In this document: one piece after another, positions 9,640 to 9,728 of the stretch | Layout: the number at the start of each line of letters is the position of its first letter | How positions within the stretch are numbered: position 1 is the stretch's first letter | Origin: Clostridiaceae bacterium | Lineage (GTDB): Bacteria > Bacillota > Clostridia > Tissierellales > Sporanaerobacteraceae | Length of the DNA stretch: 64,000 bases | Reading direction: 5' to 3' | NCBI GenBank assembly: GCA_019391515.1 | Contig: JAHXQP010000029.1 | Coordinates: forward strand, 1 to 64,000 | The notes under the pieces: generated by a model | The model's input: only the letters and a program-made list of their open reading frames with translations | What the model was told of the DNA's origin: nothing | Database searches by the model: none | Translations under genes and position numbers: made by a program

Positions 9640-9728
9640 ATATTAATAGAACCAATTATAATGGAATGTAAATTTATATTTATGTTCTATAGAACTAAAT
9701 TTTAATAGAACTATATTAGAATAAAAAA
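9640..9728 (+). ncRNA. Degenerate mini-CRISPR (psiR1-psiS-psiR2), candidate CreA/CreR-like crRNA-like guide RNA
   Basis: psiR1 ATATTAATAGAACCAATTATAATGGAATGTAAAT (9640-9673) keeps TTAATAGAAC and GAATGTAAAT of the array repeat exactly; psiR2 ATTTTAATAGAACTATATTAGAATAAAAAA (9699-9728) is 24/30 identical to CTTTTAATAGAACTAAAGTAGAATGTAAAT; 25-nt psi-spacer between them. Confidence 0.75.

What the first reader, a model, noticed from the sequence alone, without database searches (positions are those of the whole stretch)
9640..9728. Unannotated degenerate mini-CRISPR upstream of cas6: candidate CreA/CreR-like crRNA-like guide
Seen: on the + strand, opposite to the main array and cas operon, 9699-9728 matches the crRNA-sense repeat at 24/30 positions. 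9640-9673 keeps both 10-nt ends of the repeat (TTAATAGAAC and GAATGTAAAT, the latter including the presumed 5' handle ATGTAAAT) around a 4-nt insertion. Between them lies a 25-nt psi-spacer, TTATATTTATGTTCTATAGAACTAA, which itself includes ATAGAACTAA from the repeat core. Established: CreA antitoxins and CreR autoregulators are single degenerate psiR-psiS-psiR units near cas genes that guide the Cas effector to repress creT or cas promoters without cleavage. Inference: this is such an RNA. The intact upstream handle with a decayed downstream handle fits one processed guide.
Basis: partly seen in the sequence, partly recalled or inferred. Interest (0 to 1): 0.92.

Follow-up and report, generated by a model that had tools for sequence, protein, structure and literature searches.

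The report
CRISPR guide RNA controlling its own genes
Next to the genes of this bacterium's CRISPR immune system lies a small, worn-down CRISPR unit whose spacer matches not a virus but the promoter region just upstream of the cas genes, so it very probably makes the system turn itself down; relatives keep the same match in twelve different sequence versions.

Summary
The finding holds and gets stronger. The psiR-psiS-psiR unit at 9640-9728 (+) is real. Its 25-nt psi-spacer matches a CCA-flanked site at 9560-9576, which overlaps the -10 and start of the best predicted promoter (P1) on the cas strand, 234 nt upstream of cas6. Fifteen genomes from about 10 families carry such a unit in the cas6 neighbourhood; 13 have their own matching CCN-flanked site, with 12 different seeds. 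Swapping guides between genomes gives 2 hits in 210, both between the window and its sister species. Per-position matches (13/13 at 1-5 and 7-11; 4/13 at 12; 9-13/13 at 13-17; 4/13 at 18) show Cascade's every-sixth-base pattern; positions beyond 11 were not selected for. The PAM agrees with protospacers of this genome's own spacers. The psi-spacers (16-29 nt) are shorter than array spacers (35-40). In seven relatives the target is the cas6 promoter region itself, so the best reading is a CreR-like autoregulator of the type I-B cas operon. In the window a 234-nt leader with a Shine-Dalgarno mini-ORF and two hairpins lies between P1 and cas6, so a CreTA-like or hybrid role is not excluded. Known kind; no transcript, processing or repression was shown.

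The parts
9640..9673 (+). psiR1: upstream degenerate repeat, intact 8-nt handle ATGTAAAT at 9666-9673, net 4-nt insertion in the middle
   Evidence: aligned psiR1 in 15 genomes
9674..9698 (+). psiS: 25-nt psi-spacer; seed 9674-9684 (TTATATTTATG)
   Evidence: array spacers of the same genome are 35-40 nt
9699..9728 (+). psiR2: downstream degenerate repeat; Cas6-binding part kept (19/22), handle decayed
   Evidence: same pattern in relatives, as described for CreA in PMC9458426
9557..9559 (+). PAM CCA of the target
   Evidence: CCA/CCT also flanks protospacers of this genome's own spacers 21 and 10
9560..9576 (+). target site: matches psiS at positions 1-5, 7-11, 13-17
   Evidence: one of two CCN+seed sites in the 2.84-Mb genome and the only one with a CCW PAM
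9575..9603 (-). P1: best promoter-like site on the cas strand (ATAACA-17-TATAAT), start near 9568; overlapped by the target
   Evidence: prediction only
9449..9484 (-). leader mini-ORF ATG..TAA (MVILIKSFLLK) behind Shine-Dalgarno AAAGGAG at 9491-9497; not conserved as a reading frame in the sister species
9449..9480 (-). leader hairpin 1 (A-T stem inside the mini-ORF)
   Evidence: z -3.3; homologous hairpin in G002 z -4.9
9341..9389 (-). leader hairpin 2, directly upstream of the cas6 ribosome-binding site
   Evidence: z -5.2; a hairpin at the same place in G002, G042, G026, G241 (z -5.4 to -6.5)
8600..9325 (-). cas6, first gene of the type I-B cas operon (cas6-cas8-cas7-cas5-cas3-cas4-cas1-cas2)
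   Evidence: (TIGR01877)
9758..10708 (-). WYL-domain regulator gene upstream of cas6, convergent with the guide
   Evidence: PF13280, PF25583

Best explanation
The unit at 9640-9728 is a natural crRNA-like guide gene of the CreR kind. It would be transcribed on the + strand, cut by Cas6 in psiR1 (giving handle ATGTAAAT) and in psiR2, and loaded into the type I-B Cascade. The guide recognises the CCA-flanked site 9560-9576, so Cascade sits on the -10 and start of promoter P1, upstream of cas6. The short, interrupted pairing should block transcription without Cas3 cleavage. Because Cascade is itself encoded downstream, this is negative feedback on cas expression, relieved when crRNAs or anti-CRISPRs occupy or inactivate Cascade. 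Shown by sequence: the unit, the PAM, the pairing, its covariation and its every-sixth-base footprint. Inferred: transcription, processing, repression, and that P1 is the promoter of the cas operon in the window.
For: Guide-target covariation: 13 of 15 genomes have their own CCN-flanked match at positions 1-5 and 7-11, with 12 different seeds; guides swapped between genomes hit in 2/210 pairs, both window/sister species. Positions beyond 11 were not selected for, yet 13-17 match 13, 13, 11, 10 and 9 of 13, against 4 at 12 and 4 at 18; pairing at 1-5 and 7-11 is what was measured for CreA in PMC8501985. In shuffles of the region, CCN+seed occurs in 9/20,000. PAM CCA/CCT is confirmed from protospacers of this genome's own spacers. 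PsiS is 25 nt against 35-40 nt for array spacers; in another type I-B system guides of 26 nt or less repress instead of cleaving (PMC10551041). PsiR1 keeps the handle and psiR2 loses it, as in CreA. In G027, G019, G197, G243, G104, G166 and G168 the target lies in the cas6 promoter region; in six genomes with TTGACA-17 promoters the protospacer begins near the predicted start, and in G168/G166 it abuts the -35 box. No terminator was found between P1 and cas6 in the window.
Against: P1 in the window is weak by score (5.8; 10 of 12 consensus bases), and the number of such sites in the region is no more than chance. The guide's own promoter is not resolved. P1 lies 234 nt from cas6, with a Shine-Dalgarno mini-ORF and two hairpins between, so P1 may serve another product. 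G279, whose cas operon is complete as far as read, has lost P1 together with the guide, so cas can apparently be transcribed without P1. No RNA data.
Confidence: 0.72

Rival explanations
1. CreTA-type addiction module, or a hybrid: P1 drives a small toxic product (the Shine-Dalgarno mini-ORF plus hairpin at 9449-9497), silenced by the guide and Cascade, while cas6 is read from a second promoter, or from both.
For: Strong SD + AUG + mini-ORF + stem-loop is the layout of known CreT genes (PMC8501985, PMC10097628). A leader of this kind sits between P1 and cas6 in six genomes from two cas6 clades; G026 has a 23-aa hydrophobic ORF behind GGAGGT, and G241 has a terminator-like hairpin before cas6. 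A weak promoter-like pair TTGAGC-17-TATATA lies between mini-ORF and cas6 in the window and G279. In G279 guide and P1 were lost together while cas stayed, as an addiction module requires.
Against: The mini-ORF is not conserved as a frame: no start codon in the sister species, MVILI* in G279. Seven relatives have the target in the cas6 promoter region with no mini-gene. No terminator between P1 and cas6 in the window.
Confidence: 0.2
2. Dead relic of a CRISPR array without function.
For: Repeats are degenerate, psiR2 has lost its handle, and some relatives with the same cas6 family have no such unit.
Against: Guide and target change together in 12 seed versions over about 10 families; exact seed kept in the sister species while flanks diverge. 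A relic cannot do that.
Confidence: 0.03
3. DNA operator for a protein (such as the WYL regulator next door): the palindrome GTTCTATAGAAC inside psiS and the AGAAC half-sites are binding sites.
For: Perfect 12-bp palindrome at 9684-9695; WYL gene adjacent.
Against: The palindrome is broken in the sister species (GTTCTATTAAAC) and absent elsewhere, while handle, seed and PAM-flanked target are kept.
Confidence: 0.03

Closest known systems
CreR (cas-regulating RNAs; described for type I-B, I-E and V-A in the reviews PMC12737573 and PMC13131331)
   Same: Single degenerate repeat-spacer-repeat unit next to cas genes, partial complementarity to a PAM-flanked site in a cas promoter region, no obligatory toxin gene.
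   Different: In the window the repressed promoter is separated from cas6 by a 234-nt leader with mini-ORF and hairpins; no experiment here. The primary CreR paper was not available to read, so I cannot say whether these species are in its lists.
CreA of CreTA modules (haloarchaeal type I-B, Acinetobacter I-F; PMC8501985, PMC9458426, PMC10097628)
   Same: Two diverged psiR, psiR1 keeping the handle and psiR2 losing it; seed at 1-5 and 7-11; PAM-flanked target at a promoter; SD mini-ORF and stem-loop downstream of the target promoter in the window.
   Different: No demonstrated toxin; the mini-ORF frame is not conserved in the sister species; most relatives have the target at cas6 itself.
CrePA (CreA guide repressing a protein toxin; PMC12737573)
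   Same: Guide + PAM-flanked promoter target near cas.
   Different: No CreP gene in the window; only the relative G045 has a separate 94-aa ORF under such a target.

Membership tests
CreR | Ectopic psiR-psiS-psiR unit linked to a cas operon | tested here: met
CreR | psiS partly complementary to a PAM-flanked site (seed beside the PAM) | tested here: met
CreR | The targeted promoter is that of the cas operon | tested here: inconclusive
   Met by position in seven relatives; in the window P1 points at cas6 with no terminator between but is 234 nt away
CreR | RNA is made, processed by Cas6 and bound by Cascade | not testable with these tools
   needs small-RNA-seq or pulldown
CreR | Represses cas transcription without cleavage | not testable with these tools
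   only indirect: psiS of 25 nt, pairing in positions 1-17 only
CreTA | Target promoter drives a toxin gene (SD mini-ORF/structured RNA) | tested here: inconclusive
   SD mini-ORF and hairpin present but the frame is not conserved in G002; toxicity not testable here
CreTA | Two diverged repeats, handle kept in psiR1 and lost in psiR2 | tested here: met
CrePA | Guide-repressed protein toxin gene (CreP) beside cas | tested here: not met
   no ORF of 60 aa or more downstream of P1 on the cas strand other than cas6

The most novel reading that the evidence does not exclude
One Cascade-repressed promoter drives both a toxin-like structured mini-gene and the cas operon behind it, so that a single guide couples cas autoregulation (CreR) with addiction (CreTA) in one transcript.
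Probability: 0.12. Interest if true: 0.8.

Novelty: new member of a known kind. Interest (0 to 1): 0.6.

Why it matters
Natural guides that make Cascade a regulator are known from few tested systems. Here a family across Clostridia keeps guide and target in step over 12 sequence versions, and the aligned pairs show which positions evolution keeps (1-5, 7-11, 13-17) and which it ignores (6, 12, 18). That gives a sequence rule for finding such guides, an in vivo footprint of Cascade pairing without cleavage, and tractable test cases, such as simple CreR units next to cas6 (G027, G019) and leader-bearing ones (the window, G042, G026).

Tried and rejected
The mini-ORF as a conserved toxic peptide: hydrophobic ORFs occur in G026, G042 and the window, but G002 has no start codon and starts or SDs in G030 and G241 are poor, so it was not adopted. 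The + strand promoter TTAAAA-18-TATAAT (9633-9662) would start inside the handle and is probably not the guide's promoter. The second genome-wide seed match (C19, CCCTTATATTTATG) has PAM CCC and lies between two divergent genes unrelated to cas; close to chance expectation. Three of four exact viral-contig scans for spacers found nothing. Spacer 5 hits in phage replication genes have no CCW flank and 3-4 mismatches, so they were not used for the PAM. The primary CreR paper is not in the library. G244 has a unit but no target at this stringency.

Full report
Setting. The window lies in a genome of the same genus as Anaerosalibacter massiliensis (G002/L064, cas6 90% identical). On the - strand it encodes a WYL regulator, then cas6, cas8, cas7 (Cst2), cas5, cas3, cas4, cas1 and cas2 of type I-B. 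The array repeat in crRNA sense is CTTTTAATAGAACTAAAGTAGAATGTAAAT; 35 copies lie at the start of contig C1 and the end of C4.

Observation. 9699-9728 matches the repeat at 24/30, and 9640-9673 keeps both ends around a net 4-nt insertion, with the handle ATGTAAAT intact. In 2,000 shuffles of the intergenic region psiR2's score was never reached and psiR1's was reached 14 times.

Relatives. A DNA search with 9320-9800 found not only the sister species (79% identical over the whole stretch) but also short matches to the unit alone, at 78-81%, in genomes of other families, mostly beside cas6. Collecting cas6 neighbourhoods from 250 genomes of the order and 394 of the class and scanning them gave 15 genomes, the window included, with a psiR-psiS-psiR unit near cas6. 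In most, psiR1 keeps GAATGTAAA[T/A] and psiR2 reads TTTAATAGAACTA.ATTAGAA and then stops, without the handle. Cheng et al. 2022 (PMC9458426) report the same division of decay for CreA: psiR1 keeps the Cas5-binding handle and psiR2 loses it.

Target. The psi-spacer from 9674 (TTATATTTATG...) matches 9560 (TTATAATTATG...) directly after CCA. For each of the 15 genomes the rule CCN plus identity at positions 1-5 and 7-11 within 1.6 kb was applied: 13 have a hit in their own region, against 2 of 210 when guides are swapped between genomes, both between window and sister species. The 13 genomes hold 12 different seeds, so both sides have changed together. Positions past 11 played no part in that selection, yet 13-17 match in 13, 13, 11, 10 and 9 of 13 genomes, while 12 and 18 match in 4 and 4, about what base composition gives; position 6 matches in 7. 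This is the pattern expected of a type I Cascade, in which every sixth base is flipped out of the duplex, and seed pairing at 1-5 and 7-11 is what was measured for haloarchaeal CreA (PMC8501985). In the window the paired positions are exactly 1-5, 7-11 and 13-17. G045, outside the 13, also fits with one seed mismatch (position 5): CCA, then matches at 6-11 and 13-17 (comparison by eye).

PAM and length. Spacer 21 of this genome has a protospacer with one mismatch in a viral contig, flanked by CCA; spacer 10 has diverged protospacers in two phage records, flanked by CCT and CCA. So the PAM of the target is the PAM used in immunity. Only two CCN+seed sites exist in the genome, and the target is the one with CCW. 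In shuffled versions of the region such a site appears in 9 of 20,000. Psi-spacers are 16-29 nt (25 in the window), array spacers 35-40. In the type I-B system of Parageobacillus, guides of 26 nt or less repress without cleavage (PMC10551041); that this holds here is an inference.

What is repressed. On the cas strand, a rough promoter model puts the best-scoring promoter at the target in most genomes: TTGACA-17-TANNNT in G243, G019, G197, G027, G042 and G030, with the protospacer starting near the transcription start, and TTGACA directly beyond the PAM in G168 and G166. In G243, G019, G197, G027, G104, G168 and G166 the cas6 ribosome-binding site follows at once or within a short promoter: the guide targets the cas6 promoter region, which is the CreR arrangement. 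In G104 the unit lies on the other strand and still has its match. In the window, G002, G042, G030, G026 and G241 the target promoter is followed by a leader of roughly 200-270 nt where both ends are on one contig, with a Shine-Dalgarno-led small ORF in several and a hairpin before cas6 in all five where that stretch was folded. These fall in two cas6 clades. P1 of the window (ATAACA-17-TATAAT, 9603-9575) has 10 of 12 consensus bases but such sites are no more frequent than in shuffles; no terminator was found up to cas6.

CreR or CreTA. Strong SD, AUG, mini-ORF and stem-loop are features of known CreT genes, and the window has them. But the frame is not kept: G002 has no start codon, and G279 has MVILI* only. 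G279, a genome of another order with 91% identical cas6 and a matching cas operon as far as read, has lost the psiR1 5' half, whatever guide promoter there was and P1 in one deletion, between short TATAATT repeats (reading of the alignment). Joint loss suits both models, and shows that cas can probably be transcribed without P1. I therefore favour CreR (0.72) over CreTA or a hybrid (0.2).

Limits. All promoter, terminator and RNA statements are predictions. The homologues are not independent of each other by descent, although 12 seeds among 13 genomes argue that the pairing was maintained through many changes. The primary CreR paper was not readable here, so novelty at the level of species lists cannot be judged; the kind is known.

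Noticed in passing
L094 (G045, Gottschalkia acidurici 9a) 2583-2867: The guide of this genome targets, with one seed mismatch, the promoter region of a separate 94-aa ORF (Curi_c06170, no relatives among 5.8 billion proteins) that ends in a terminator-like hairpin before the WYL gene: a candidate CreTA/CrePA toxin.
   Followed up: partly
L115 / L119 (G279): A genome of another order carries a nearly identical WYL-cas locus (cas6 91%, cas1 96%, but cas5 only 54%) with guide and target promoter removed in one deletion; suggests recent transfer and natural loss of the regulator.
   Followed up: partly
window 1-980 and L118 (G000:C4 55600-57211): The two arrays lie at a contig start and a contig end in the same orientation with the same repeat; probably one array of at least 35 repeats split by the assembly.
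   Followed up: no
window 9341-9389: Perfect 16-bp inverted repeat directly upstream of the cas6 ribosome-binding site; hairpins of different sequence but similar shape stand at the same place in relatives.
   Followed up: partly
window 9655-9662 versus 9557-9574: psiR1 contains CCAATTATAATGG, nearly the reverse complement of the target CCATTATAATTATGG; the guide gene and its target share this stretch, origin unexplained.
   Followed up: no
window 9729-9757: The guide and the WYL gene converge with only 29 nt between psiR2 and the WYL stop codon; read-through from WYL would be antisense to the guide.
   Followed up: no
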